This document shows, in pieces, positions 28,000 through 42,686 of a stretch of 64,000 nt of DNA. Positions within the stretch are counted from its first letter, which is position 1. Each line of letters opens with the position of its first letter. The DNA comes from Microbacterium arabinogalactanolyticum (GTDB taxonomy: Bacteria > Actinomycetota > Actinomycetes > Actinomycetales > Microbacteriaceae). Location: positions 186,001 through 250,000 of the forward strand of contig NZ_BRZC01000007.1 of the NCBI RefSeq assembly GCF_030268005.1. The letters run 5' to 3'. Under the pieces are notes generated by a model. The model did not search any database and had not been told where the DNA came from. It was given only the letters and a program-made list of their open reading frames with translations. The translations under genes and the position numbers were made by a program.

Positions 28000-29706
28000 T
28001 CATCGACCCCGGATCGCGGCCGTCGCCTTCTCGTCGACGCCGAAGTCGGCCGTCACTACCACGCCGTAGTCGCGTTCCGCCGAGCGGTGCGAGACGAATC
28101 CGTTTCGCACGTCGTGCGCGACGGCGACGGGATCACGGCGCAACGGGTCTCCGTACCCGCCTCCCCCGCCGGTCTGGTTGACGAGCACGTCGCCCGCTTC
28201 GAGCCGGTTGTAGCTGCCGCCCTGCACGACCTCGCGGTCGGTGCCGGGGTTGAGCACGACCCGATTCGGCTTCCCGACCGCGCCGCCGTCGATCGCCCAC
28301 GGCTCCGTCTTCGTCTTGTAGACGAGGCAGATGCCGGTGGCTGGTGCTGTGAAGCGGTACGACCGGCTCACTCCGACCCCGCCGCGGTGCTCGCCTGCAC
28401 CGCCCGTGTCGGCGCGATAGCCGTAGTGCTCGATGATCATCGAGGACTTCGCCTCGAGCACCTCGACCGGGTTGTTGCGGCATCCGGGCTCCGAGAGGTG
28501 CATGATCCCGTCCTCGCCGTCGTGGCGCGCGGTGCCGCCGAAGCCGACGGCTTCGTTGGTCGCCTCCTGCCACGGCTCGCCGGTGCGCGGGTTCACGCCG
28601 AGGCCCATCATGGAGCACACGTCGCCGCCCGAGCAGGCGGGCACGAGCTCCGGCATCCCCTGAGCCAGGGCCTTGAGGATCACCTCGCCGGCGAGGAGGC
28701 CGGTCCAGAGAGTGAACGTGGGCATCGGCGACACCGCGTGCATGACCGAGCCGGGCACGGTGACCACGCGCAGCGGGGCGAAGTTGCCCGCGACGACCGG
28801 GGAGTCCGGCGTCGTGAGCGACTTGAAGATCAGGCTGGAGAGCGCCTCGGTCTGCCCCGGCGGCAGGTTGATGGGACCCTCGACGTTCTCGGCGCTGCCG
28901 GTCCAGTCGACGACCATCTCCTCGTCGGACACCGTCACAGTGCACTGCAGCCTGACGAGCTCGTCCTTGTTGATCCCGTCGTCGTCGACGTAGTCCACTG
29001 CGCTCCACGTGCCCTTCGGCAGCTTCGCGAGCGCGAGCCTGGCGAGCTTCTCACCGTGCTCGTTGATGGTCGCCATCGCCTCGGTCAGCGTGCCGACGCC
29101 GTACTTGTCGGCGAGCTCCTGGGTGCGGCGCACCCCGGTCACGCACGCCGAGACCTGCGCCTGGATGTCGCCGATCGTGTGCTTCGGCATGCGGCTGTTG
29201 AACCGGATGATGTTGAACACGTCCTCGTTGCGCTCGCCCCTGCGATACAGCTTCGACGCGGGCAGCATCAGCCCCTCCTGCGAGCGGTCCGTGGAGTCGA
29301 GGACGTAACCGGGGTCCTTCTGGTTCAGGTCGGTCACGTGCACGCGGCACGAGGCGAAGCCGATCAGCTCGTCGTCCACGTGGATCGGGGCGAAGACGAG
29401 GGGGTCGAGGGTGTGGGCGCTCGACCAGTAGGGGTAGTTGATGATGAAGACGTCGCCGGGCTCCATGGCGTCGACGCCCAGGAACTCCATCGAGTGCTTG
29501 ATGCCGGCGTCGTTGCCCCTGGTGAACACGGCGATCCCCGGTGCGTCGGCGACCACATCGCCGTTGGCGTCGTGGATGCCGATGCCGTAGTCGTGGATCT
29601 CGTAGACCACGGTGTTGTAGGCGGTGCGGCACAGGTTGCGCGCGACCTCCTCTGCAGCGGCCAGCAGGCCGTGCCTGATGATCTCGGTGGTGATGGCGTC
29701 GGCCAC
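28000..29706 (-). CDS. hyuB: Hydantoinase B/oxoprolinase beta-type subunit
   Basis: A 568-residue protein of the HyuB family: NTVVYEIHDYGIGIHDANGDV, PGDVFIINYPYWSSAHTLD, GPINLPPGQTEALSS and the glycine-rich C-terminal TGGGGGYGDPLRRDP are all typical. HyuB works with HyuA in ATP-dependent hydrolysis of hydantoins, oxoproline or related cyclic amides in the cytosol. GTG start with GGGAG upstream, 1 base after the HyuA stop, so the two subunits are coupled. It is the last gene of the minus-strand operon and is followed by a hairpin terminator. Confidence 0.9.
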   Translation of the reverse strand: MADAITTEIIRHGLLAAAEEVARNLCRTAYNTVVYEIHDYGIGIHDANGDVVADAPGIAVFTRGNDAGIKHSMEFLGVDAMEPGDVFIINYPYWSSAHTLDPLVFAPIHVDDELIGFASCRVHVTDLNQKDPGYVLDSTDRSQEGLMLPASKLYRRGERNEDVFNIIRFNSRMPKHTIGDIQAQVSACVTGVRRTQELADKYGVGTLTEAMATINEHGEKLARLALAKLPKGTWSAVDYVDDDGINKDELVRLQCTVTVSDEEMVVDWTGSAENVEGPINLPPGQTEALSSLIFKSLTTPDSPVVAGNFAPLRVVTVPGSVMHAVSPMPTFTLWTGLLAGEVILKALAQGMPELVPACSGGDVCSMMGLGVNPRTGEPWQEATNEAVGFGGTARHDGEDGIMHLSEPGCRNNPVEVLEAKSSMIIEHYGYRADTGGAGEHRGGVGVSRSYRFTAPATGICLVYKTKTEPWAIDGGAVGKPNRVVLNPGTDREVVQGGSYNRLEAGDVLVNQTGGGGGYGDPLRRDPVAVAHDVRNGFVSHRSAERDYGVVVTADFGVDEKATAAIRGR

Positions 29707-29707
29707 G

Positions 29708-31756
29708 TCAGGCTCCCTTCTTCGCGTACTGGATCGAGATGATGAGTTCGCCGTATGCGCCGACCTCGAGTCGGTCACCGGCATGCAGCACGGTCGTCGC
29801 CGTGTGCTCGGTCACGACGGCGGGACCCTCGAGGACATCGCCGGCCATGAGCTCCTCGCGCGAGACGAGCGCGTACTCCGCCGTCTCGTCGCCGTCGAGC
29901 ACGACCGTGCGCGTCCGCAGCGCGGGCGCTCCTCCGTCGGGGCGGGGCGCCGCCTTCGGCAGATCGGGCTTGTCGACCACGCCCACCGCACCCAGGCGAA
30001 GAGTCGTCGTCTCGATGGGGTCGTCCATGGTGTGCCCGTACTGCCGCAGATGCAGCCGGTCGAACTCCGAACGGATGGCCTCGCGGGGATCGCTGCCGTC
30101 CTCGGGGTAGTCGACCGTGACCGAGTGCTCCTGGCCCGAGTACCGCACGGCGACCACCCGGTGGAAGATCATCCGGTCGTCGTCGAAGCCCTCGGCGCGC
30201 AGGGTCTCCCTCGCCTCCGCCTCCATGCCGGCGTACAGGGCGTCGGCCGCCTCGGCGTCGAGGTCCTCGAGCGCCTGCAGGCTCGTGCGCGAGTAGTCGT
30301 GCTGCACATCGGCCATCAGCATCCCGAGCGCCGAGAACGCCCCCTGTCCCGGGGGCACGATCACCTCGGGGATCCCGAGCTCGCGGGCCACGTCGACCGC
30401 GACGAGGCCTCCGCCGCCGCCGAACGACAGCAGTGCGAAGTCCTTCGGGTCGTGCCCGAGCTCGATGGTGATCGCGCGGACGGCGCCCATGATCTTGGTG
30501 TTCGAGATCTGCACCATGCCCCGCGCCAGCTGGGTGACGCTGAGCCCGAGGGCCTCGGCGATCGGGGCCAGCGATTCGAGCGACTTCTCGCGGTCGAGCG
30601 TGAGCTCACCGCCGAGCGGGGTGTCGGTGCCGAGGTAGCCGATGGCGAGGGCGGCATCCGTGAATGTCGGCTCCGTCCCGCCGCGGCCGTACGCGGCCGG
30701 TCCCGGCATCGCCCCGGCGCTCTTCGGCCCGACCTGCAGGGCGCCCGCCTCATCCAGGTAGCCGAGCGAGCCGCCGCCCGCGCCGATCGTATGGATGTAG
30801 AGCGACGGAGTGTTGATCGGAAGGCCCTCGAACTCCGCGCCGTGATAGAGGACGGGGTTGCCGTCCTGCACCAGCGAGGCGTCGAGGCTCGTGCCGCCCA
30901 TGTCGATGGTGATGAGGTTCGGCCTGCCGATCAGCTTCGCGAAGGCGGCGGCGCCGACGACGCCGCCGGCCGGGCCCGACAGGATGAGGTTCACGGGCTG
31001 CTCGCGCGCCGCCGAGGCGGTCATCGCTCCGCCGCCCGAGCGCGACATGAGGAAGCGCCCGTCGAATCCGCGCCGCTCGAGCTCACCCTCGAGCGCCTTC
31101 AGGTAGCTGCGCATGATCGGCTTGATGTAGGCATCCAGCACCGCGGTGCTGGTGCGCTCGTACTCGCGGTACTCGCGGGAGAGCTCGTGCGACAGCGTGA
31201 CCTCGACCCCCGGTGCCTCCTCCACGAGGATCTCGCGCATCCGGAGCTCATGCGCGGGGTTCGCATAGGCGTGCAGGAACGCGACCGCGACCGCGTCGTA
31301 CCCTCGGCGCAGGATCTCGCGCGCGACCTCGCGCGCATCCTCGTCGTCGAACGGCGTCGCCACCGAGCCGTCGAACATGCAGCGCTCGGTCACCTCGAAG
31401 GTGTCGTAGCGCTCGAGCAGGGCCTCTGGCTTGCGATAGGCGATGTCGTACATCACCCGGCGGTCGGTGCGGCCGAGCAGGTAGACGTCGCGGAAGCCGC
31501 GCGTCGCGATCGTCGCGATGCGTGCACCGGTGCGGGTCAGCAGGGAGTTCAGGCCCAGGGTGCTGCCGTGATTGAAGGTCGAGACATCTGCGGGGTGCGC
31601 TTCGGCCTTCTCGAAGGCCGCCAGCACGCCGGCGGTCGGTTCGCTCGGCGTGGTCGGCACCTTCTCGAAGCGGAGCTCGCCGGTCTCGGGGACGAGTTTC
31701 ACCACGTCGGTGAACGTTCCTCCGACGTCGATGGCGATTCGGACGTTCTCGGACAT
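29708..31756 (-). CDS. hyuA: Hydantoinase A/oxoprolinase alpha-type subunit
   Basis: A 682-residue HyuA-family ATPase with intact ASKHA motifs: IDVGGTFTDVV (residues 9-19), SGPAGGVVGA, and IDMGGTSLD, plus GAGGGSLGYLD. Together with HyuB it should open a cyclic amide (hydantoin, N-methylhydantoin, oxoproline or similar) at the cost of ATP. The gene follows the importer permease after 114 bases, has AAGGA as ribosome binding site, and is coupled to hyuB. The ring compound is not determined by the sequence; the ribose-type importer upstream would bring it in. Confidence 0.9.
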   Translation of the reverse strand: MSENVRIAIDVGGTFTDVVKLVPETGELRFEKVPTTPSEPTAGVLAAFEKAEAHPADVSTFNHGSTLGLNSLLTRTGARIATIATRGFRDVYLLGRTDRRVMYDIAYRKPEALLERYDTFEVTERCMFDGSVATPFDDEDAREVAREILRRGYDAVAVAFLHAYANPAHELRMREILVEEAPGVEVTLSHELSREYREYERTSTAVLDAYIKPIMRSYLKALEGELERRGFDGRFLMSRSGGGAMTASAAREQPVNLILSGPAGGVVGAAAFAKLIGRPNLITIDMGGTSLDASLVQDGNPVLYHGAEFEGLPINTPSLYIHTIGAGGGSLGYLDEAGALQVGPKSAGAMPGPAAYGRGGTEPTFTDAALAIGYLGTDTPLGGELTLDREKSLESLAPIAEALGLSVTQLARGMVQISNTKIMGAVRAITIELGHDPKDFALLSFGGGGGLVAVDVARELGIPEVIVPPGQGAFSALGMLMADVQHDYSRTSLQALEDLDAEAADALYAGMEAEARETLRAEGFDDDRMIFHRVVAVRYSGQEHSVTVDYPEDGSDPREAIRSEFDRLHLRQYGHTMDDPIETTTLRLGAVGVVDKPDLPKAAPRPDGGAPALRTRTVVLDGDETAEYALVSREELMAGDVLEGPAVVTEHTATTVLHAGDRLEVGAYGELIISIQYAKKGA

Positions 31757-31870: not shown

Positions 31871-32854
31871 CTAGCGCTTGCCGCGGCCGGCCGCGGCGAG
31901 GCCGACGGCCGCGAGGATGATGAACCCGGTCACCATGTCCTTCAGCTGCGGGTTCAGGTTCAGCAGGTCGAAGCCGTTGCCGATCAGGGCGATGAGGAAG
32001 ACACCGGCGACAGAGCGCCAGACGGCTCCGATGCCGCCGTAGATGCTCGTGCCGCCGAGGATCACGGCCGCGATCGCGCTCAGCTCGAGCCCGGCGCCGG
32101 CGAGCGGCTGTCCGGACGCGATGCGCGAGACCCCGATCGCCGCGGCCGTACCGGCCGCGAGCCCGCTGATCACGAACACCAGGACCCTCGTGCGGGCCAC
32201 GTGAATGCCCGACAGCTCGGCCGCCTCCGCGTTGCCGCCGACGGCGTACACGCGACGGCCGAAGAGGGTCCGCGAGAGCAGGAACCACAGGATCGCGACC
32301 GCGACGATCATCACGAACACCGCGATGAAGATGCCGCCGACGCGGTTGCGCCCCAGAGCGGTGAAGCCCGGCGTCGTCACGGTGATCAGGCTGCCGCCGG
32401 TGATGAGCACCGCGACCGTCGTGAAGATCATCGAGGAGGCCAGAGTCGCGAGGAAGGAGTGCACCCGGAGTCGGGTGATGACGGTGCCGTTGAACGCGCC
32501 GAGGACGATGCCGATGAGGGGCGCCGCACCGAGGGCGAGCGCGACATCGCCCGTGCTCACCGCGAGCCATGCCGCCACGACGCCGGCCACGCTGTAGATC
32601 GCGCCGGTCGACAGGTCGAAGTTGCCCGAGATGATCACGAACGTCCCTGCGGCGGCGATGATCACCAGCGGAGCGTTCTGGTTCAGGATGTTGACGATGT
32701 TGCCGAACGTGAAGAACGACGGCGACAGCACGGCGAGCGCGACGAGCACGGCGACGAGCAGGAGCAGGACCGCGTACTCGATGACGAGCTCCTTCGGCGA
32801 GAACTTCCTGCTGGCGCGGGTCCGCGTCACGGTGGTGTTTGCGGCCTCGGTCAC
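31871..32854 (-). CDS. Ribose-type ABC importer permease (RbsC-like)
   Basis: A 327-residue permease with the family landmarks NIVNILNQNAPLVIIAAAGTFVIISGNFDLSTGA, the FLATLASSM helix, FGRRVYAVGGNAEAAELSGI (the coupling loop) and AAVILGGTSIYGG. It forms a homodimeric pore with the ATPase encoded just upstream. The GTG start (VTEAANTT) lies behind GAGAGGAGG and overlaps the ATPase stop by 4 bases. RbsC-type importers also carry nucleosides, purines and autoinducers, so a sugar substrate should not be assumed. Confidence 0.9.
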   Translation of the reverse strand: MTEAANTTVTRTRASRKFSPKELVIEYAVLLLLVAVLVALAVLSPSFFTFGNIVNILNQNAPLVIIAAAGTFVIISGNFDLSTGAIYSVAGVVAAWLAVSTGDVALALGAAPLIGIVLGAFNGTVITRLRVHSFLATLASSMIFTTVAVLITGGSLITVTTPGFTALGRNRVGGIFIAVFVMIVAVAILWFLLSRTLFGRRVYAVGGNAEAAELSGIHVARTRVLVFVISGLAAGTAAAIGVSRIASGQPLAGAGLELSAIAAVILGGTSIYGGIGAVWRSVAGVFLIALIGNGFDLLNLNPQLKDMVTGFIILAAVGLAAAGRGKR

Positions 32855-34377
32855 GCTGCCGCCTCCTCTCCGGTGGTCACGTGGAAGAGCCGGAACAGCA
32901 CGTCCTCCACGGTGGTCTGCTCGGGGACGATCTCCCCGAAGGTCTGGCCGTTGGAGACCAGGTAGGCGCGATGGGCGAGCTCCATGATCTCCTCGTGCTC
33001 CGACGAGATCAGGAGCACGCCGATGCCCTCCGCGGCGAGTCTGACGATGAGCTCGTAGATGGTGCGCTTCGCTCCGACGTCGACGCCTCGAGTCGGCTCG
33101 TCGAGGATGATCAGCTTCGGGTCCGCGGCGAGCGCCTTGCCGAGGAGGGCCTTCTGCTGATTGCCTCCCGAGAACCATCCGACAGGCAGCTCGATGTCGG
33201 GTGGCCGGATCTCGAGCGACTCCGCGAGCTCACGTGCCGTGCGCTTCTCGCTCCTGCGGTCGACGATCCCGCCCCGCGCGCGGGCCGGGAGACTCGCGAG
33301 ACCGATGTTCTCGCGCACCGATCGCTGCAGGACGAGGCCGTCCTTGTGGCGGTCCTCCGAGACGAGCACGAGGCCTGCATCGATCGAGTGCTTCGGGGTC
33401 CGCCCGGTCCAGTCGCGGCCACCGAATCGGATCTCGCCGGAGACGACCTCGTCGAGGCCGAACACGGCACGGAGGCATTCGGTCCGCCCGCTGCCCACGA
33501 GGCCGAGCAGTCCGACGATCTCGCCGGGGCGCACCTCGAAGCTCATCCGCTCGACCCCGGTCGTGGTGCGGAGCTCCCGCACCGTGAGGAGCGGGTCGGA
33601 TGCTTCGGGGAGCGGCGGACGGTCGGGGTACGCCTGCTCCATCTCGCGGCCGAGCATCGCGGTCACCAGATCGTGCTTCGACACCGAGGCCGCGTCGACC
33701 GTCGCGATCCGACGCCCGTCCCGCATCACGGTGATACGGTCGGCGACGCCGAGGACCGAGTCGAGGAAATGCGAGACGTAGATCACGCAGCACCCTCTGT
33801 CCCGGAGCGTCCGCATCAGCTGCTCGAGCTGCGCCATCTCGTGCGCGGTCAGGGACGAGGTGGGCTCATCCATCACGATGATCCGGGCATCCCTGGCGAG
33901 CGCCCGCAGGATCTCCACCTTCTGCTGATCGGCGATGCGCAGATCGCGCACCTTCTCCCCCGGGTCGAGGCCGAATCCGACCTGCGCGTCGAGCGTCGCG
34001 AAGCGCGCGGCGAGGTTGCGCCGCTCGATGCCGAAGCGGTGCTCCTCGACACCGAGGAAGACGTTCTGGGCGACGGTGAGGTCGGGGACGAGCGCCAGCT
34101 CCTGGGCGATCATCGCGATCCCCTGCTTCTGCGCGATCCCCGGGTTCCACCGGTCGACGGGGGCGCCGTCGACGACGACCTCGCCCCCGTCGGCCGCGTA
34201 GATGCCGGCGATCACCTTGCCGAGGGTCGACTTGCCCGCGCCGTTCTCTCCGACGAAGGCGTGGACCTCCCCGCCCCGGACGTCGAGCGACACGCCGTCG
34301 AGCGCCTGGGTCGCGCCGAACCGTTTGTCGACTCCCCGGAGTTCGACGAGAACGGGTCCGCTGGCAGCATCCTGCAT
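32851..34377 (-). CDS. Ribose-type ABC importer double ATPase (RbsA-like)
   Basis: A 508-residue protein with two fused ABC domains. The first has GENGAGKSTLGKVIAG, the LRIADQQKVEILRAL region in place of a perfect signature, and IIVMDEPTSSLT. The second has the loose Walker A GLVGSGRTE, signature FSGGNQQK and LIILDEPTRGVDVGAK. This asymmetric pattern is normal for RbsA/XylG proteins. It powers import through the permease that follows. ATG start is 4 bases after the binding-protein stop. Confidence 0.92.
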   Translation of the reverse strand: MQDAASGPVLVELRGVDKRFGATQALDGVSLDVRGGEVHAFVGENGAGKSTLGKVIAGIYAADGGEVVVDGAPVDRWNPGIAQKQGIAMIAQELALVPDLTVAQNVFLGVEEHRFGIERRNLAARFATLDAQVGFGLDPGEKVRDLRIADQQKVEILRALARDARIIVMDEPTSSLTAHEMAQLEQLMRTLRDRGCCVIYVSHFLDSVLGVADRITVMRDGRRIATVDAASVSKHDLVTAMLGREMEQAYPDRPPLPEASDPLLTVRELRTTTGVERMSFEVRPGEIVGLLGLVGSGRTECLRAVFGLDEVVSGEIRFGGRDWTGRTPKHSIDAGLVLVSEDRHKDGLVLQRSVRENIGLASLPARARGGIVDRRSEKRTARELAESLEIRPPDIELPVGWFSGGNQQKALLGKALAADPKLIILDEPTRGVDVGAKRTIYELIVRLAAEGIGVLLISSEHEEIMELAHRAYLVSNGQTFGEIVPEQTTVEDVLFRLFHVTTGEEAAA

Positions 34378-34381
34378 CAGA

Positions 34382-35419
34382 TCAGCCGTTCCACTCGCCG
34401 GTGAAGTCGGGCGCCGCTTCGAGGTCGTCCTTGGTCGCCATCGGGGGGAGGTCGACGAGCGTGTCGGCGTCGACGACGGCCTGCACCTTCTCGCCGCGCA
34501 GCCTGTTGATCAGCTGCTCGAGTGCGGCCTCACCCATGCTGACCGGGTAGTTCAGGTAGTCGTTCGTCCACTTCCCCTCGCGCACGGCCTTGACGGCCTC
34601 CGTCGTTCCGCCTCCGCCGGTGAGGAAGATCGACGAGGGGTCGATGCCGGCGTTCTCGAGCGCGATCTGCGCTCCCAGCGTCTGCTGGTCGGCGTTGCTG
34701 AGGATGCCGTTGATGTCCTTGTTGGCCTGCAGCAGATTCGACACCGCGGTGAGCGACTTGTCGCGATCATAGGCGCCCTCGACGGTGCCGACGATCTCGA
34801 TGTTCTTGTGCGCGCCGAGGACGTCCTTCCAGGCCTTGATGCGTGCGACGTCGAGCGGAGAGTTCAGCAGTCCTGCCAGCAGGCCGATCTTGCAGGGGTC
34901 GATGTCCTTGCAGTACTCGACGACGGTCTCCGCCTGGCGCTTCGCTCCGGCCGACGGCGGCGAGGCCACGGTCGAGACGACGCCCTCGGTCTGCGGCTCC
35001 ATCTTGTCGATGTCCGGTCCGATGGGGTTCAGCACCGACACCACGGGGATGTCGTTGCCCAGTGGGAAAGCCGCAGCCAGGCCCGGTCCGTCCTGGGGCA
35101 CGACGATGACGCCGCTCGCCTGGCCGGTCGTCCCTGCGTTCTGCAACTGCGAGAGCTGGGTGTTGGCGTCGAACTGGCCGTCCTGGATCTTGGTCGTGAT
35201 CGTGATGCCGAGCTCCTTCTGCAGCTCCTTCGCCTTCTTCTGCACCCCCTCGTACACGGCCTGGTTGTAGCCGTTCTGCGACGAGGAGGCGAGGAAGACG
35301 ATCGAGAAGCTGTCGCCGTCGCCGCTTCCGCCGGGTCCGCCGTCGGAACTGCAGGCTGCGAGGGAGACGCCGAGCGCGAGCACGCCGGCGCCGGCGATGA
35401 TCCGTGGGAGGTGCGTCAT
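34382..35419 (-). CDS. Ribose-type solute-binding lipoprotein (RbsB-like)
   Basis: A 345-residue type 1 periplasmic-binding-protein fold with lipoprotein signal (LGVSLAAC, Cys23). FSIVFLASSSQNGYNQAVYEGVQKKAKELQ opens the fold and GVIVVPQDGPGLAAAF is the typical hinge region; DINGILSNADQQTLGAQIALENAG follows. Ligand unknown, but the operon continues with hydantoinase subunits, so a cyclic ureide, purine breakdown product or related ring compound is plausible. AAGAAG provides a modest ribosome binding site. The gene lies 34 bases downstream of the small ABM-like gene. Confidence 0.88.
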   Translation of the reverse strand: MTHLPRIIAGAGVLALGVSLAACSSDGGPGGSGDGDSFSIVFLASSSQNGYNQAVYEGVQKKAKELQKELGITITTKIQDGQFDANTQLSQLQNAGTTGQASGVIVVPQDGPGLAAAFPLGNDIPVVSVLNPIGPDIDKMEPQTEGVVSTVASPPSAGAKRQAETVVEYCKDIDPCKIGLLAGLLNSPLDVARIKAWKDVLGAHKNIEIVGTVEGAYDRDKSLTAVSNLLQANKDINGILSNADQQTLGAQIALENAGIDPSSIFLTGGGGTTEAVKAVREGKWTNDYLNYPVSMGEAALEQLINRLRGEKVQAVVDADTLVDLPPMATKDDLEAAPDFTGEWNG

Positions 35420-35453: not shown

Positions 35454-35774
35454 TCAGATCTCGGTTCTGGAGACGCGGTGGTCGACCTCGTAGAGGCGCC
35501 CGACGCCGATCCGTGCGTCGGCGAGCAGCGCCGACAGCTCGGGGGCGGTGCGCGCGCGGTTCGGGTGGTCCAACCACTCCTGGTAGGCGGCCTCGTCCGG
35601 CCAGACGGCGGTCACGATGATCTCGCCCGATCCGTCGACCGCCGTGGCGATCTCCGAGCTGAAGGCGCGGGTCAGGTCGAGTGACTCCTGCAGGATCGCC
35701 TCGCGGCGGTAGAGCTCCAGCACGGAGTCCGCCTGCGCCGGCGTCGTGTGCAGGGTCAGGACTGAACGGATCAT
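35454..35774 (-). CDS. Small ABM-fold (antibiotic biosynthesis monooxygenase-like) protein
   Basis: A 106-residue single-domain protein; MIRSVLTLHTTPAQADSVLELYRR, then VTAVWPDEAAYQEWLDHPNRA match the dimeric alpha+beta barrel of ABM/EthD-like proteins. These can be cofactor-free monooxygenases, isomerases or heme-degrading enzymes, or simply help a pathway. It is the first gene of the hydantoinase/importer operon, which suggests a part in handling the imported ring compound. Ribosome binding site is weak (GGAG 11 bases upstream). Confidence 0.75.
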   Translation of the reverse strand: MIRSVLTLHTTPAQADSVLELYRREAILQESLDLTRAFSSEIATAVDGSGEIIVTAVWPDEAAYQEWLDHPNRARTAPELSALLADARIGVGRLYEVDHRVSRTEI

Positions 35775-35884: not shown

Positions 35885-35914
35885 TGTGCGTAATGCACAT
35901 TGCGGATGCCGCAA
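35885..35914. promoter_or_regulatory. Adjacent palindromes in the divergent control region
   Basis: Two abutting inverted repeats: TGTGCGTAATGCACA (35885-35899, 5-base arms) and TTGCGGATGCCGCAA (35900-35914, perfect 6-base arms). They lie between the importer/hydantoinase operon and the PucR operon, about 40-70 bases upstream of a TAGCGT -10 box (35954-35959) on the plus strand, the usual place of an activator site. PucR is the obvious candidate to bind here. Confidence 0.55.
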
Positions 35915-35993
35915 GAAATGCAAAAGAATGAAACTGCTGATGCGCGGCGGCTCTAGCGTTGCGTCCGGACAGAGGATCGCGAAGGAGCGGACG

Positions 35994-37283
35994 ATGCGTG
36001 TCGGAGTGAGAGTGCACGAGCGGCGCGTCACCGCCGCCCTGCTGCACCCCGACGGTACGTATACGGCCGACGAGACACCGGTCCGCGCCGACGGAGTCGA
36101 GGCGTCCATCGACCGGCTGCTCGGACGGATCGCGCGGTCGGCGCCGACGGTCTCGTCGATCGCCTTCGACGTCAGCGACGCGCTGCACCTCTCCGAGGTC
36201 GCACCCCTCACCGTGGTCCGCATCGCGCCGAGGCCGCCCGTCGCGCTCGCGGATGAGCCGCGGGTCGGTGACGCACCGATCATCCATGTGCGCGGTGGTC
36301 ATACGACGCTCGGCGAGGAGCTGGCGCCGTTCGACACGGCCGGCTTCCGCGCATCCGCCGCCGCGATCCCACCGGGGTCCCGCGTCGTGATCACGAGCGT
36401 CGGCGCACTCGTGAACCCGGCGCACGAGCTCGCCGCGGGCGAGATCCTTCTCGAGCTTGGCGGTCCGCTGAGCGTCGTGTTCTCGCACGCCTTCGCAAGC
36501 AACTCCTTCGCGACGCGGGAGCACACCGCGATCCTCAACGATGCCCTCGTGCCCGACGCCGAAGCACTCGCCACCGCGCTCGCGCTGGTCGCCGGCCGCA
36601 GGTTCCCCGACGCGCGCCTCTCGGTCACGAGGAATGACGGGGGCCGCGTGCCGTTGAGCAGGCTCCCCGCAGAGCCGATCCACTCCGCGTTCTCGGGCGC
36701 ACCGGTGGATTTCCTCGGCGCTGCAGCGCTCTGCGGATTGGACGACGGCGATCTCGTGCTCGCGTCGGATGACGGCCTGGCGCTCGGGACGCTGCGCGCC
36801 GGAGCGCCGGCTGTGATCCCGCGCCTGCACTGGAAGGGAGCCCGCCTGTCGACCCAGGCCGCGCACCTGGTCCCGGCGACCGAGATCCTCCTGCACGGGA
36901 GGACCACGACCCCCCGCCTCGTCCGCGTCGCCGGAGCTCCGCTGCCGGGCTGGCTCGAGGGCGGTGAGGTCGTGGAGACGGACCACGATCTTCGCGCGCT
37001 GGGAGCCGCCTGCGCTCCGCTCTCCGATTGGGCGCTCGGCACTGTCGGCGCCGTGAACGCCGCGGAGATGGCGCACGAGCTGCAGGCGGCCGAGGCGCGC
37101 GTCCGGGCCAGGCTCGCGGCGTTCGGTGCACTCCCGTCTTCTGTGCGCATCCTCGAGTCGCAGCTCGTGGCCACGACCTACGAGCACGCCAGGGTGGTCT
37201 CGGTCCGCGTGCGCGGCGTCGCCGGGGATCCCGTCGGGGGTCTGCTCACCGGCAGGAGGGCGCGCCATGCGGCTCAGCGCTGA
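35994..37283 (+). CDS. HyuA-like protein lacking the ATPase motifs
   Basis: A 429-residue protein that follows the hydantoinase A layout but has lost its nucleotide-binding signatures. The N-terminal IDVGGTFTD is replaced by VRVHERRVTAALL, the middle SGPAGGVVGA by FSGAPVDFLGAAAL, and IDMGGTSLD by ASDDGLALG (residues 257-265). The segment SHAFASNSFATREHTAILNDAL still mirrors SHELSREYREYERTSTAVLDAY of the canonical HyuA at 29708-31756. ATP hydrolysis therefore looks unlikely. It heads a coupled operon with a DUF917-like gene (17-base overlap) and a PucR regulator. ATG has AAGGAG 7 bases upstream. Confidence 0.72.
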   Translation: MRVGVRVHERRVTAALLHPDGTYTADETPVRADGVEASIDRLLGRIARSAPTVSSIAFDVSDALHLSEVAPLTVVRIAPRPPVALADEPRVGDAPIIHVRGGHTTLGEELAPFDTAGFRASAAAIPPGSRVVITSVGALVNPAHELAAGEILLELGGPLSVVFSHAFASNSFATREHTAILNDALVPDAEALATALALVAGRRFPDARLSVTRNDGGRVPLSRLPAEPIHSAFSGAPVDFLGAAALCGLDDGDLVLASDDGLALGTLRAGAPAVIPRLHWKGARLSTQAAHLVPATEILLHGRTTTPRLVRVAGAPLPGWLEGGEVVETDHDLRALGAACAPLSDWALGTVGAVNAAEMAHELQAAEARVRARLAAFGALPSSVRILESQLVATTYEHARVVSVRVRGVAGDPVGGLLTGRRARHAAQR

Positions 37284-38349
37284 GGATGTCAGGCACCTGC
37301 GCACCGGTGCGCTCTTCCTCGCCTGCGCGGCCGATCCCGAATGGTGCGACGAGCAGCAGGATCGGATCCTCGCGCGGATGGAGGGCGGCGACACCGCCCC
37401 GGAGCTGCTCGGCGTCGAGGAATTCGACGAGGACGCCCTGGTGGCAGCAGTCGGGTTCGTGAACAACGGGCTCCCGCTCTCCGAGCTGCGCCCTGCCGGC
37501 GACGAGTTCGTCAGCAGCGTCGAACTGCTCGAGCGCGAGCTGGGGCGCCGCATCGAGGGACTGTTCCCTCTCGCCGCTGCGAACGTGAACTCGATGGTCC
37601 CGCTGCTGACCGGGATGCAACTCGACCGCCCGGTGGTCGACGCCGACCCCATGGGGCGGGTGTTCCCGCTACTGTTCCAGTCCGTGTTCACCCTCGCGGG
37701 GCTCCCGGCCGGCCCCCTCGCCGCGACGGGACCGGTCGGCGAGTCCGCGTTCCTGCGGGTGCGCGAGCCCCGGCGTGCGGAGCGCCTCGTCCGGGCGCTC
37801 GCCGAGGAATTCGGCGGCTGGTCGGCGACGGCGCTCTATCCGATGACGGCGAGGGATCTCGCCAGGACCGGAGTGCTCGGCAGCGTGTCGCGGATGGTGC
37901 GCATCGGCAGGATCCTGGACTCCGATGCGAGCGCGAGTGCGAAGCACCAGCAGCTCCGGCGCAGCGAGGGCGTTCGCCGGATCATCCGGGCGAGAGTCGC
38001 CGACGTCGCCGGGCTCTCGCGACCCGCTCCGGCGGGCGAACCGGACCACCCGTCGAGCGTCGTGCTCATCGAGGAGTCCCAGGGTCGCTTCGTGCAGCTG
38101 GAGATCCAGAACGAACTTCTTCTGCTCATGGTCGACGGCACGCCCGAAGCGGTCATCCCGGACATCATCACGATGCTGCATCCCGACGACGGCCGCGTCG
38201 CCAGCCTCGACGACCTGTGGGTCGGCAACACCCTCGACCTCGTCGTCCTCCCTGCCGCCGGCCAGTGGTACACACCGGAGGGCCGGCGTCTGGCGGCCCC
38301 GGAGACGCTGCACTCCCTGCTCCCCGACCGCGGAAGGGCCCCGAGATGA
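37267..38349 (+). CDS. DUF917-like protein (S-Me-THD family) without the glycine loop
   Basis: A 360-residue member of the DUF917/S-methyl-thiohydantoin desulfurase-like family: NVNSMVPLLTGMQLDRPVVD, then DADPMGRVFPLLFQSVFTLAG and ALYPMTARDLARTGVLGSVSRMVRIGRIL match the family core. The N-terminal glycine loop normally written GTGGGG is LACAADP here (residues 18-24), and the usual GGxNS turn has become ANVNS. It therefore looks like a divergent, possibly non-catalytic member. It overlaps the HyuA-like gene by 17 bases and the PucR gene by 4 bases, which argues that the three products act together. Confidence 0.78.
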   Translation: MRLSAEDVRHLRTGALFLACAADPEWCDEQQDRILARMEGGDTAPELLGVEEFDEDALVAAVGFVNNGLPLSELRPAGDEFVSSVELLERELGRRIEGLFPLAAANVNSMVPLLTGMQLDRPVVDADPMGRVFPLLFQSVFTLAGLPAGPLAATGPVGESAFLRVREPRRAERLVRALAEEFGGWSATALYPMTARDLARTGVLGSVSRMVRIGRILDSDASASAKHQQLRRSEGVRRIIRARVADVAGLSRPAPAGEPDHPSSVVLIEESQGRFVQLEIQNELLLLMVDGTPEAVIPDIITMLHPDDGRVASLDDLWVGNTLDLVVLPAAGQWYTPEGRRLAAPETLHSLLPDRGRAPR

Positions 38350-39851
38350 ACCGATCCTCCGCGGGAGCCGTCGAGCTGCGCGACCTCATCGACACGCGCG
38401 ATCTCGCCGGCCTCTCGGTGCTGCACCTCGTCTCGGGCCGCAGCCCCGTGCGTGATCTCGCCCTCGTCGCCGACTTCGAGGACATCAGTTCGGTCGGCCC
38501 CGACACCGTCGTGCTCCTCGCTCCGGGTGGCGCGCGAGGGGGCTGGATGATCTCGGCGGCGCTGCGCTACGCGTGGGAACGGCGTGCGTGCGCGCTCATC
38601 GTCCCGGAGCAGCCGTTCACCGCGTCGGTCATCGAGCTCGCGAAGCGCCTGGAGGTCTCGCTGCTCACCACCCGACGCGATATGACCCGCCTCGCGATCG
38701 ATGCGGCGATCCGGATCGGCGCCGCGCGTGCCGAGGCGATGGTCCGCGTGCGCGCCGTCGTCGATCGGCTGGCGACCGTCTCCGGGCCCGCGCAGGCCGT
38801 CGACATGCTGTCGGACGAGCTCAGCGGAGCGCAGGTGTGGATCGAGTCCTCCGGGGCTCGCACGTTCGCGTCTCCGATGCCCCGCGAGGGCGATCCCGAC
38901 CCTCGAGCCATGTCGGTCGTCCGGGCCAGGCTCGCGCCTCGGGCCGAGGAACAGGACCTGGTGCTCGCCAGGGTTCCCACACATGCGGTGGTCTTCGGCG
39001 AGCAGCTGCTTGCCGGGGCCGCACCATCGCTCAGGGCTCTGCTTCTCGAGCAGCGCCTGAACGCCACCCGGACTTCGCTCCCCGCCATCTCGATCACGGC
39101 GCTGACCGGGTTCGCACCGATCGCCACGTTCATGGAGCCGTCGGAGCCGCAGGACGAACAGCGCGCGCGGCTGCCGCTCGACGGCGCCTTCCTGGCAGTG
39201 TGCCTGCTCGCCGAGGCGCCGGATCGCCTGGGCGCCCTCGTGCACCAGCTCTGGCACCTCGCCTTTCCCGAGGCGCCGCTCGCCCGATTCGAAGGCGGCT
39301 GGATCGGCTTTCTTCCCGTCGGCGATACCACCGAGCAGCGGGCGGAGACGCTGGCACGGGTGAGAAGCGGGTTCGTGCGCGCCGCGGGCGTCCCGATCAC
39401 CGGAGGCTGCTCAAGAGTCCACCGTTCCGCAGGGAGCGCTAAGCACGCGGTCCGCGAGGCCTGGCTCGCCGCGCGTCTCGCGGATGCCGCGGGGGCGACA
39501 CCCGAGGCGCCCAGCTCCGACGCCTTCGTGGAGTTCGACCACGCGCCGCTGCACCTGCTTGAACGTGTCGTGCCGGCGGATCTCGCCGATCAACTCGTCG
39601 AGGCGCTGTTCCCGCAGCTCGTCGCCGATCCCTCGGCTCCCCGCCTCATTGAGGCAGTGCTCGGCTACCTGTCGGCGAACGGGTCGATATCGACCGCCGC
39701 CGCGCGTCTCGGTCTGCACCGCAACACCGTGCAGACCAGGCTTCAGCGCGCCGCCGCGCTCGGCGTCGACCTCACCGAGCAGGCGAACGTGCTCCCCGTG
39801 CATCTGCTCTTCGCGGCGATGCATCGCGCGGGCCCCCGCGCGGACGTGTGA
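38346..39851 (+). CDS. PucR-family transcriptional regulator
   Basis: A 501-residue regulator. The N-terminal PucR-type sensor region runs from AVELRDLIDTRDLAGLSVLH to about residue 120, a variable middle follows, and the C-terminal HTH is LGYLSANGSISTAAARLGLH, followed by RNTVQTRLQRAAAL, the PucR/CdaR C-terminal helix-turn-helix. Relatives control purine, allantoin, proline and sugar-acid catabolism. It is translationally coupled to the DUF917-like gene (ATGA) and lies opposite the importer/hydantoinase operon, which it probably controls, along with its own operon. Confidence 0.87.
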   Translation: MNRSSAGAVELRDLIDTRDLAGLSVLHLVSGRSPVRDLALVADFEDISSVGPDTVVLLAPGGARGGWMISAALRYAWERRACALIVPEQPFTASVIELAKRLEVSLLTTRRDMTRLAIDAAIRIGAARAEAMVRVRAVVDRLATVSGPAQAVDMLSDELSGAQVWIESSGARTFASPMPREGDPDPRAMSVVRARLAPRAEEQDLVLARVPTHAVVFGEQLLAGAAPSLRALLLEQRLNATRTSLPAISITALTGFAPIATFMEPSEPQDEQRARLPLDGAFLAVCLLAEAPDRLGALVHQLWHLAFPEAPLARFEGGWIGFLPVGDTTEQRAETLARVRSGFVRAAGVPITGGCSRVHRSAGSAKHAVREAWLAARLADAAGATPEAPSSDAFVEFDHAPLHLLERVVPADLADQLVEALFPQLVADPSAPRLIEAVLGYLSANGSISTAAARLGLHRNTVQTRLQRAAALGVDLTEQANVLPVHLLFAAMHRAGPRADV

Positions 39852-41348: not shown

Positions 41349-42686
41349 ATGAGCAAAGAGGCCCCCGCCAATTGGTATGCCGACCCTACGGGCCGACACC
41401 AGTACCGCTACTGGGACGGCGCCCGGTGGACAGATACCGTCGCCGACAACGGCAACCAGTCAATCGATCTGCTCGTACCAGCAGCAGCGCCGCTGACCCG
41501 GCGCGAGATGCGGCAACAGGCGAAGGCAGACGCCCGTGCACAGAAGGAAGCGGAGCGCGAAGCCAAGCGCCTGCAGGAGGTTCACGAGCGCCGGGTCCGC
41601 GAGCTCGCCGCGAAGCAAGCGGAAGCCGCACGGGTGCTCGCCGAGCAGCAGAAGCGAACCGAGCAGGAGGCCGCGGCGCGAGCAGCACTCGAACGACAGG
41701 AAGCCCGCCTCCGCGCCGAGCAGGAAGCTCGCGCGGCGGCCGAACGCGAAGCACGGGAAGCCCAGGACCGCGAAGCGCGGATCATCACCCAGTACCCCCG
41801 GTTCCGACTCCCTGACAGCAGCGGCTACCCGACCACGGAAGTCGCCGGCGAGTTCGCCCGCATCGATGCGATCCACCGCGTGCTCGGCCGCGCACCCCGC
41901 ATCGACCAGGAGCTCGTCAACGAGAACCTCGTCGCACTGCTAGTCCCCGAACCGCAAAACGCATTCGACCGCAACGCCGTCAAGGTCGTCATCAGCGGAT
42001 ACCACGTGGGCTACCTGGAGAAGGAAGTCGCCGCAATCACCCAGCCGATCATCCGCCGCATCATCGACGCCGGCTATGCTCCCGCTGTCGGCGCCCGCAT
42101 CTGGGCCGTCGCACGCCGCGGCTATGACGGCCCGGCGAAGCAGCATGCGAACGTCCGCCTCGCGCTCACTTACACGCATCTGATGACCCCGCGCAACGAC
42201 CCGCCACACGAGGCCTACAGCATCCTCCCCTGGGCCTCCGCGCTGCAGGTCACTGGCGAGGAGCACCACCAGCACGTCCTCGCCGAGTACGCCACCGAGG
42301 GCGACTCCCTCGTGATCGGCACCCTGCACGTCATACACGGTGGCATGGCAAAGACGCCGAAGGAGCTCATCGAGGTGCGCCTCGACGGCGAGCGCGTCGG
42401 CCAAATGACGCCAGCCTCGAGTCAGCACTTCCTACCGACCGTGCACCACCTCGCAGCGCAGGGCATGACGGCGGCCGCCTGGGTCACGATCACGGGCAGC
42501 GCGATCGCCGCTCAGGCGGTGTTGCATGCGACGAAGGCGCATGAGCTGCCTACCGAATGGTTCGAGGCACCTCAGACCGCGCCGCGGCTGTGGGGCACCC
42601 CCGCCCGTCGCGCCGTCGATGATGGCGCGATCGACGATGCGGAGATCCGCTCGCAGATGCGCGAGCCGATGTGGGACGAGCCGTGA
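41349..42686 (+). CDS. DUF2510-coiled-coil-HIRAN domain protein of unknown function
   Basis: A 445-residue protein with three parts. Residues 8-36 (NWYADPTGRHQYRYWDGARW) are a DUF2510 module, usually found in membrane or surface proteins of actinobacteria, yet no membrane helix follows. Residues about 50-150 are a long Arg/Glu/Ala-rich coiled coil. From residue 165 a HIRAN domain begins (VAGEFARIDAI, LLVPEPQNAFDRNAVKVV, GYHVGYLEKE); HIRAN binds 3' ends of single-stranded DNA in HLTF. A second, weaker copy starts near 299 (VTGEE, then ELIEVRLDGERVGQMTPASS). GAGGGA is the ribosome binding site. GAA, CAA and GCA codons are commoner than in neighbours, suggesting transfer. Confidence 0.78.
   Translation: MSKEAPANWYADPTGRHQYRYWDGARWTDTVADNGNQSIDLLVPAAAPLTRREMRQQAKADARAQKEAEREAKRLQEVHERRVRELAAKQAEAARVLAEQQKRTEQEAAARAALERQEARLRAEQEARAAAEREAREAQDREARIITQYPRFRLPDSSGYPTTEVAGEFARIDAIHRVLGRAPRIDQELVNENLVALLVPEPQNAFDRNAVKVVISGYHVGYLEKEVAAITQPIIRRIIDAGYAPAVGARIWAVARRGYDGPAKQHANVRLALTYTHLMTPRNDPPHEAYSILPWASALQVTGEEHHQHVLAEYATEGDSLVIGTLHVIHGGMAKTPKELIEVRLDGERVGQMTPASSQHFLPTVHHLAAQGMTAAAWVTITGSAIAAQAVLHATKAHELPTEWFEAPQTAPRLWGTPARRAVDDGAIDDAEIRSQMREPMWDEP

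What the first reader, a model, noticed from the sequence alone, without database searches (positions are those of the whole stretch)
35994..39851. Operon of two motif-stripped hydantoin-pathway enzymes plus a PucR regulator
Seen: three genes overlapping by 17 and 4 bases. The first keeps the HyuA layout but lacks IDVGGTFTD, SGPAGG and DMGGTSLD; the second keeps the DUF917 core but lacks the GTGGGG loop; the third is a PucR regulator. A canonical HyuA with all motifs lies in the divergent operon, so catalysis is already covered. Known: HyuA and DUF917 proteins work in hydantoin-type chemistry. Inference: the stripped pair may be a ligand-sensing complex that informs PucR, a regulatory system built from former enzymes.
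Basis: partly seen in the sequence, partly recalled or inferred. Interest (0 to 1): 0.72.

Follow-up and report, generated by a model that had tools for sequence, protein, structure and literature searches.

The report
Dead hydantoinase pair beside its regulator
Two proteins descended from ring-opening enzymes have lost their catalytic signatures yet are kept beside a gene switch in dozens of soil-type bacteria, which suggests that retired enzymes may now help the cell sense the compound it is about to digest.

Summary
Window 35994-39851 encodes a HyuA-fold protein without ATP motifs, a DUF917/S-Me-THD protein without its glycine loop, and a PucR-type regulator, overlapping by 17 and 4 bases. 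Each stripped protein falls in one clade. In 38 of 38 distinct actinobacterial loci the three genes keep this order; canonical HyuAB lies in the fetched stretch in 37. Motif loss is consistent and the genes are under purifying selection, so this is not decay.

Intact short HyuA, DUF917 and a paralogous PucR stand in the same order elsewhere (13 of 21 intact loci, one in this genome); the stripped trio looks like a descendant. And a palindrome TGTGC-N5-GCACA precedes the stripped clusters (17 of 23 at 9/10 or better) and the intact operons (9 of 11; 0.2 expected); it is probably the operator of both regulators.

The sensing role is inference: no ligand and no contact with PucR was tested. DUF917 is as constrained as the working enzymes, so a changed activity remains possible.

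The parts
35994..37283 (+). stripped short HyuA (429 aa): HyuA/ASKHA fold, no P1, no P2, adenosine segment deleted
37267..38349 (+). stripped DUF917/S-Me-THD protein (360 aa): glycine loop and E103 lost, DxDxxGR and E283 kept
38346..39851 (+). PucR-type regulator (501 aa): GGDEF-like domain and HTH_30
35885..35899 (.). palindrome TGTGCGTAATGCACA, candidate operator between the divergent operons
35919..35932 (+). conserved block TGCAAAAGAATGAA (13 of 14 bases the same in all five regions aligned), promoter or second site; role unknown
35454..35774 (-). small ABM-domain protein (106 aa), first gene of the divergent operon
34382..35419 (-). ribose-type ABC substrate-binding protein
32851..34377 (-). 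ABC importer ATPase
31871..32854 (-). ABC importer permease
29708..31756 (-). canonical long HyuA with all ATP motifs
28000..29706 (-). canonical HyuB

Best explanation
The trio descends from an ordinary operon of short HyuA, DUF917 and PucR, presumably an ATP-dependent ring-opening system with its own regulator. In this clade the chemistry is done by a separate long HyuA/HyuB pair, fed in most members by an ABC importer. The old HyuA and DUF917 stayed next to PucR and lost ATP binding and the glycine loop. Most likely they now form a non-catalytic complex that binds the imported hydantoin- or lactam-like compound and informs PucR, which switches the importer and HyuAB genes through the TGTGC-N5-GCACA operator, much as the galactokinase relative Gal3p informs the yeast GAL switch (analogy recalled). 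Shown by computation: motif loss, one clade, conserved order and partners, purifying selection, a shared palindrome. Inferred: the complex, the ligand, action on PucR, and PucR as the binder of the palindrome.
For: Order kept in 38 of 38 distinct loci, HyuAB in the fetched stretch in 37 of 38, full importer in 26 of 38. First Asp of P1 and of P2 replaced and adenosine segment deleted in 35 of 35 aligned stripped HyuAs against 10 of 10 kept in intact ones; in caprolactamase, alanine at these two Asp nearly abolished activity (PMC8453981 section 13). DUF917 loop and E103 lost in 40 of 40 rows against 46 and 45 of 47 kept. New clade-specific invariants in both proteins. One clade each, SH-aLRT 99. 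dN/dS 0.17-0.35 for stripped HyuA, 0.04-0.11 for DUF917. Same palindrome before stripped clusters and intact operons; of three perfect copies in the genome one is here and one lies beside another HTH_30 regulator gene.
Against: No ligand, complex or regulation was tested. The same order with intact motifs is common (13 of 21 intact loci), so linkage to PucR may be inherited. DUF917 is as constrained as HyuA and HyuB and keeps D125, D127, R131 and E283, which suits an enzyme. The regulator is a full-length homologue of those of intact operons and shows no clear domain loss. Ten Arthrobacter-type loci lack a 9/10 palindrome in the regions tested.
Confidence: 0.42

Rival explanations
1. The pair is still an enzyme with changed chemistry: DUF917 carries an ATP-independent activity on a related ring (hydrolase, isomerase or desulfurase) and the HyuA-like protein is its structural partner; PucR is an ordinary regulator.
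For: DUF917 dN/dS 0.04-0.11, like HyuA and HyuB (0.05-0.11). D125, D127, R131, R176 and E283 kept in 40 of 40 stripped rows and 46 or 47 of 47 intact rows; new near-invariant W185, R241, R243. NCBIfam's nearest names are thiohydantoin desulfurases, far below cut-off (46 and 44 bits against 450 and 440).
Against: Glycine loop, E103 and the neighbouring GG are lost in the clade and ATP binding in its partner; a working HyuAB is present in 37 of 38 loci.
Confidence: 0.36
2. The pair is an accessory or allosteric part of the HyuAB enzyme (assembly factor, activator or storage partner), not of PucR.
For: HyuAB accompanies the trio in 37 of 38 loci; related carboxylases have additional HyuA-like subunits (PMC5214803 passages).
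Against: The trio, not HyuAB, forms the tight overlapping unit with PucR; HyuAB is divergent or some kilobases away in many loci. Short HyuAs have DUF917, not HyuB, as neighbour.
Confidence: 0.12
3. The pair is decaying remains of the old operon.
For: Stripped HyuA evolves fast (long branches) and is in pieces in L090.
Against: Open frames over several families, dN/dS well below 1, clade-specific invariant residues. In L090 the HyuA frame is split too, so sequencing error is likely there.
Confidence: 0.03

Closest known systems
Intact operons of short HyuA, DUF917 and PucR, several with a cytosine/purine-type permease (C4 operon of this genome, L009; L105-L116, L118)
   Same: gene order, fold families, paralogous PucR, the same palindrome in front (9 of 11 tested)
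   Different: ATP motifs and glycine loop intact, two or three DUF917 genes in most, no HyuB and no ribose-type importer at these loci; permease named by Pfam in four of four tested
ATP-dependent HyuA/oxoprolinase/caprolactamase alpha subunits
   Same: fold over nearly the whole length
   Different: no P1, P2 or adenosine motif, no HyuB partner of its own
DUF917 / S-methyl thiohydantoin desulfurase family (Pfam PF06032, PF20906; structure 2o3i)
   Same: both domains above cut-off, fold, DxDxxGR and E283
   Different: loop and E103 lost, new invariant residues
PucR-type regulators such as GabR and MabR
   Same: HTH_30, GGDEF-like domain; family members bind inverted repeats (PMC7652997 passages)
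   Different: stands in one overlapping unit with two enzyme-fold proteins
Yeast Gal3p and ROK repressors (recalled; Gal3p only in a listing abstract, PMC7556753; ROK repressors as weak fold matches)
   Same: a former sugar-kinase-type fold acting in gene control
   Different: here two former enzymes of one system beside a bacterial PucR; role not shown

Membership tests
ATP-dependent HyuA (catalytic alpha subunit) | HyuA/ASKHA fold | tested here: met
   model matches 5l9w_b Z 25.1, 6yra_A Z 23.4
ATP-dependent HyuA (catalytic alpha subunit) | phosphate 1 motif DxGGTxTD | tested here: not met
   first Asp absent in 35 of 35 aligned rows
ATP-dependent HyuA (catalytic alpha subunit) | phosphate 2 motif DxGGT | tested here: not met
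   first Asp absent in 35 of 35
ATP-dependent HyuA (catalytic alpha subunit) | adenosine segment (GxGGGS-type in short HyuA) | tested here: not met
   gap in 35 of 35
DUF917 / S-Me-THD family | Pfam N and C domains | tested here: met
   98.4 and 109 bits, cut-off 27 each
DUF917 / S-Me-THD family | glycine loop GTGGGG | tested here: not met
   0 of 40 stripped rows, 46 of 47 intact
S-methyl thiohydantoin desulfurase (enzyme) | NCBIfam equivalog score | tested here: not met
   46 bits against 450
S-methyl thiohydantoin desulfurase (enzyme) | activity | not testable with these tools
   needs an assay
PucR-type regulator | C-terminal HTH_30 | tested here: met
   33 of 33 members scanned
PucR-type regulator | GGDEF-like domain | tested here: met
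   window protein above cut-off; 28 of 33 members at E 0.01
PucR-type regulator | N-terminal PucR domain PF07905 | tested here: inconclusive
   0 of 33 stripped-locus and 2 of 18 intact-locus regulators match at E 0.01, yet the two groups align over 478 columns
Gal3p-like pseudo-enzyme sensor | catalytic motifs lost, fold kept | tested here: met
   for the HyuA part; DUF917 only in part
Gal3p-like pseudo-enzyme sensor | ligand binding without catalysis and contact with the regulator | not testable with these tools
   no complex prediction or assay was available

The most novel reading that the evidence does not exclude
A bacterial transcription switch in which a heteromer of two pseudo-enzymes, a HyuA without ATP binding and a DUF917 without its glycine loop, is the inducer sensor of a PucR-type regulator, evolved by loss of catalysis from an enzyme operon whose operator it still uses.
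Probability: 0.38. Interest if true: 0.78.

Novelty: new variant of a known kind. Interest (0 to 1): 0.6.

Why it matters
How PucR-type regulators sense their inducers looks unsettled: for GabR the presumed inducer did not change DNA binding (PMC7652997 passages), and for MabR the effectors remain to be identified (PMC11617747 passages). A conserved pseudo-enzyme pair beside such a regulator, with a candidate operator, makes the question directly testable, and intact and stripped forms of one operon can be compared. It also warns that genes annotated as hydantoinase or DUF917 in such clusters may not be catalysts.

Tried and rejected
Decay of the genes: rejected on open frames, dN/dS and clade-specific invariants. 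Long HyuB-linked HyuA as nearest kin: not supported; the profile scores the short HyuAs higher and the tree puts the stripped clade with them. Loss of the regulator's own N-terminal sensor domain as proof of outsourced sensing: not supported. SGPAGG loss as a clean marker: rejected. Papers on a non-catalytic HyuA/DUF917 pair: none seen in the listings (open-licence PMC library only).

Weak points of the palindrome: it was seen by eye in the 23 stripped-cluster regions, so one search is no independent test; the 11 intact operons are the test set. Of 14 intact loci with PucR on the operon's strand I left out L112, L117 and L118, for which I had assigned no first gene; for L113 I set the operon start to 11440 from homologue lengths after the site had been listed (8 of 10 without L113). 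Six of the 23 regions reach only 7 or 8 of 10, which shuffles reach in 10-38% of draws. Ten Arthrobacter-type loci have no site of 9/10 or better in the 250 bp before stripped HyuA or the 300 bp before HyuA; five of them have a 9/10 form 446-642 bases before HyuA. The perfect dyad is not enriched in the genome as a whole: 3 places, against 9 for the control pattern read backwards.

Trees used the quick method and carry long-branch warnings, for L099 and L128 in the HyuA tree and L123 in both or either; the careful method and the one-clade test were not run.

Rows dropped: L090 (stripped-HyuA frame in pieces) from motif counts and the HyuA tree; L102 (archaeal, HyuA only) from all counts; L099 is in the 35 but not in the 38 loci, the 40 or the stripped clade. 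L123, L126 and L128 were tested for P1 and the loop by pattern only in HyuA. The 40 stripped DUF917 rows include two genomes twice (L100/L125, L101/L127); the intact set of 47 includes L099's DUF917 and several paralogues per locus.
Full report
Observation. The window carries three overlapping + strand genes at 35994-37283, 37267-38349 and 38346-39851. Pfam sees the first only as a weak Hydant_A_N match, the second as S-Me-THD (DUF917) N and C domains, the third as a PucR-type regulator. Divergently, from 35774 down to 28000, lie a small ABM protein, a ribose-type ABC importer (binding protein, ATPase, permease) and canonical HyuA and HyuB; that HyuA holds all four motifs. The AlphaFold model of the first protein (pLDDT 87.8) matches HyuA-family structures over nearly all its length; that of the second (pLDDT 87.1) matches 2o3i, TM-score 0.77 on the query.

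Relatives. Searches with the stripped HyuA led to 38 distinct loci of the stripped kind: the window, G069 (L036), G095 (L038), L069-L098, L100, L101, G144 (L123), G198 (L126) and G184 (L128). Named records include Microbacterium, Leucobacter, Arthrobacter, Pseudarthrobacter, Paenarthrobacter, Sinomonas, Pseudonocardia, Amycolatopsis, Paractinoplanes, Nakamurella and Quadrisphaera. In 38 of 38 the three genes stand in the same order on one strand (35 by script, three read). HyuAB is in the fetched stretch in 37 (L071 is a 4.7 kb contig); all three importer genes in 26, two in L128, none in 11, L071 among them. The set was found by similarity to the stripped HyuA, so it does not tell how often the other genes occur without it. 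In the order-level sample 7 of 396 genomes have a match below 1e-70, and G144 proved an eighth. In L074, one of the ten loci without importer, an Asp/Glu/hydantoin racemase-type gene and an MFS transporter stand between the trio and HyuAB, which hints at hydantoin-like chemistry.

Motif loss. In 35 of 35 aligned stripped HyuAs (L099 included, L090 left out) the first Asp of P1 and of P2 are replaced and the adenosine segment is gapped; the 10 intact short HyuAs keep them. In caprolactamase, alanine at these two Asp left 0.05 and 0.4% conversion after 17-19 h against 100% in 1 h (PMC8453981 section 13; motif definitions in its passages, and those of PMC5214803). GG, the Asp-Gly of the ND(G) region, the following Gly of GAA and a C-terminal Tyr are kept. 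In DUF917 the loop and E103 are lost in 40 of 40 rows, while D125, D127, R131, R176 and E283 stay, and new near-invariant residues appear (Q118, R170, W185, P192, R241, R243). Each stripped group is one side of a branch with SH-aLRT 99 (quick method, long-branch warnings).

Selection. Window against five relatives: dN/dS 0.17-0.35 for the stripped HyuA, 0.04-0.11 for DUF917, 0.22-0.38 for PucR. Against four relatives: 0.05-0.11 for HyuA and for HyuB, 0.07-0.23 for the binding protein. All are under purifying selection. DUF917 behaves like the enzymes, the stripped HyuA more like the regulator.

Origin. Short HyuA with P1, DUF917 with the loop, and PucR stand in this order on one strand in 13 of 21 intact loci (L009, L105-L108, L110-L116, L118). 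One is in this genome (C4, L009), behind a cytosine/purine-type permease, and its PucR is the only other match to the window's PucR there at E up to 10. The stripped trio is best seen as a descendant of such an operon. L099 has a HyuA without P1 beside a DUF917 that keeps the loop, in another order; it may be an intermediate or a separate case.

Operator. The intergenic region holds TGTGCGTAATGCACA at 35885-35899. The dyad TGTGC-N5-GCACA reaches 9 or 10 of 10 in 17 of 23 stripped-cluster promoter regions, 11 of them perfect (discovery set), and in 9 of 11 intact operons, where shuffles give 0.2. Spacers of 0-4 and 6-12 give at most 5 of 23 and 1 of 11. The perfect dyad occurs three times in the 3.67 Mb genome: here, between another HTH_30 regulator gene and an acyl-transferase gene, and beside a thioredoxin-like gene. 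The second place recalls MabR, a PucR-family regulator whose gene lies immediately upstream of the operon it controls (PMC11617747 passages). Ten Arthrobacter-type loci lack a 9/10 site in the regions tested. PucR-type regulators are known to bind inverted repeats (PMC7652997 passages). That this PucR binds this dyad is inference.

Mechanism. The simplest account that covers loss of catalytic motifs, new invariants, tight linkage to PucR and a separate working HyuAB is a non-catalytic pair that senses the substrate for PucR. It is not proven. The main rival is an enzyme with changed chemistry, carried by DUF917, and the odds between the two are nearly even.

Literature. The only paper listed with all three words (hydantoinase, DUF917, PucR) is PMC11055893, which calls DUF917 likely hydantoinases in cyclodipeptide oxidase clusters; PucR is only in its reference list (passages). 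No paper on a non-catalytic pair was listed. PMC9477822 (passages) was read for HyuAB context and says nothing on the trio.

Noticed in passing
L099:8595-12639: Amycolatopsis taiwanensis has a HyuA without P1 next to a DUF917 that keeps the glycine loop, in the order DUF917, HyuA, PucR, and without HyuAB in the fetched stretch: an intermediate or a second, separate loss.
   Followed up: partly
L129:1435-2733: One of only three perfect TGTGC-N5-GCACA dyads in the genome lies between a second HTH_30 (PucR-family, MabR-like) regulator gene and an acyl-transferase gene, so the dyad may be a wider PucR-family operator.
   Followed up: partly
L090:2509-11349: Arthrobacter sp. Hiyo8: stripped HyuA is in three pieces and HyuA in two, while DUF917 and PucR are whole; sequencing error or a decaying copy.
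   Followed up: no
L009:7579-8613: The third DUF917 gene of the intact operons is a divergent paralogue; in L111 its counterpart lacks the glycine loop by pattern search.
   Followed up: no
window 35454-35774: A small ABM-domain protein opens the divergent operon and has counterparts beside other clusters of this kind; role unknown.
   Followed up: no
window 41349-42686: Protein with DUF2510 and HIRAN domains.
   Followed up: no
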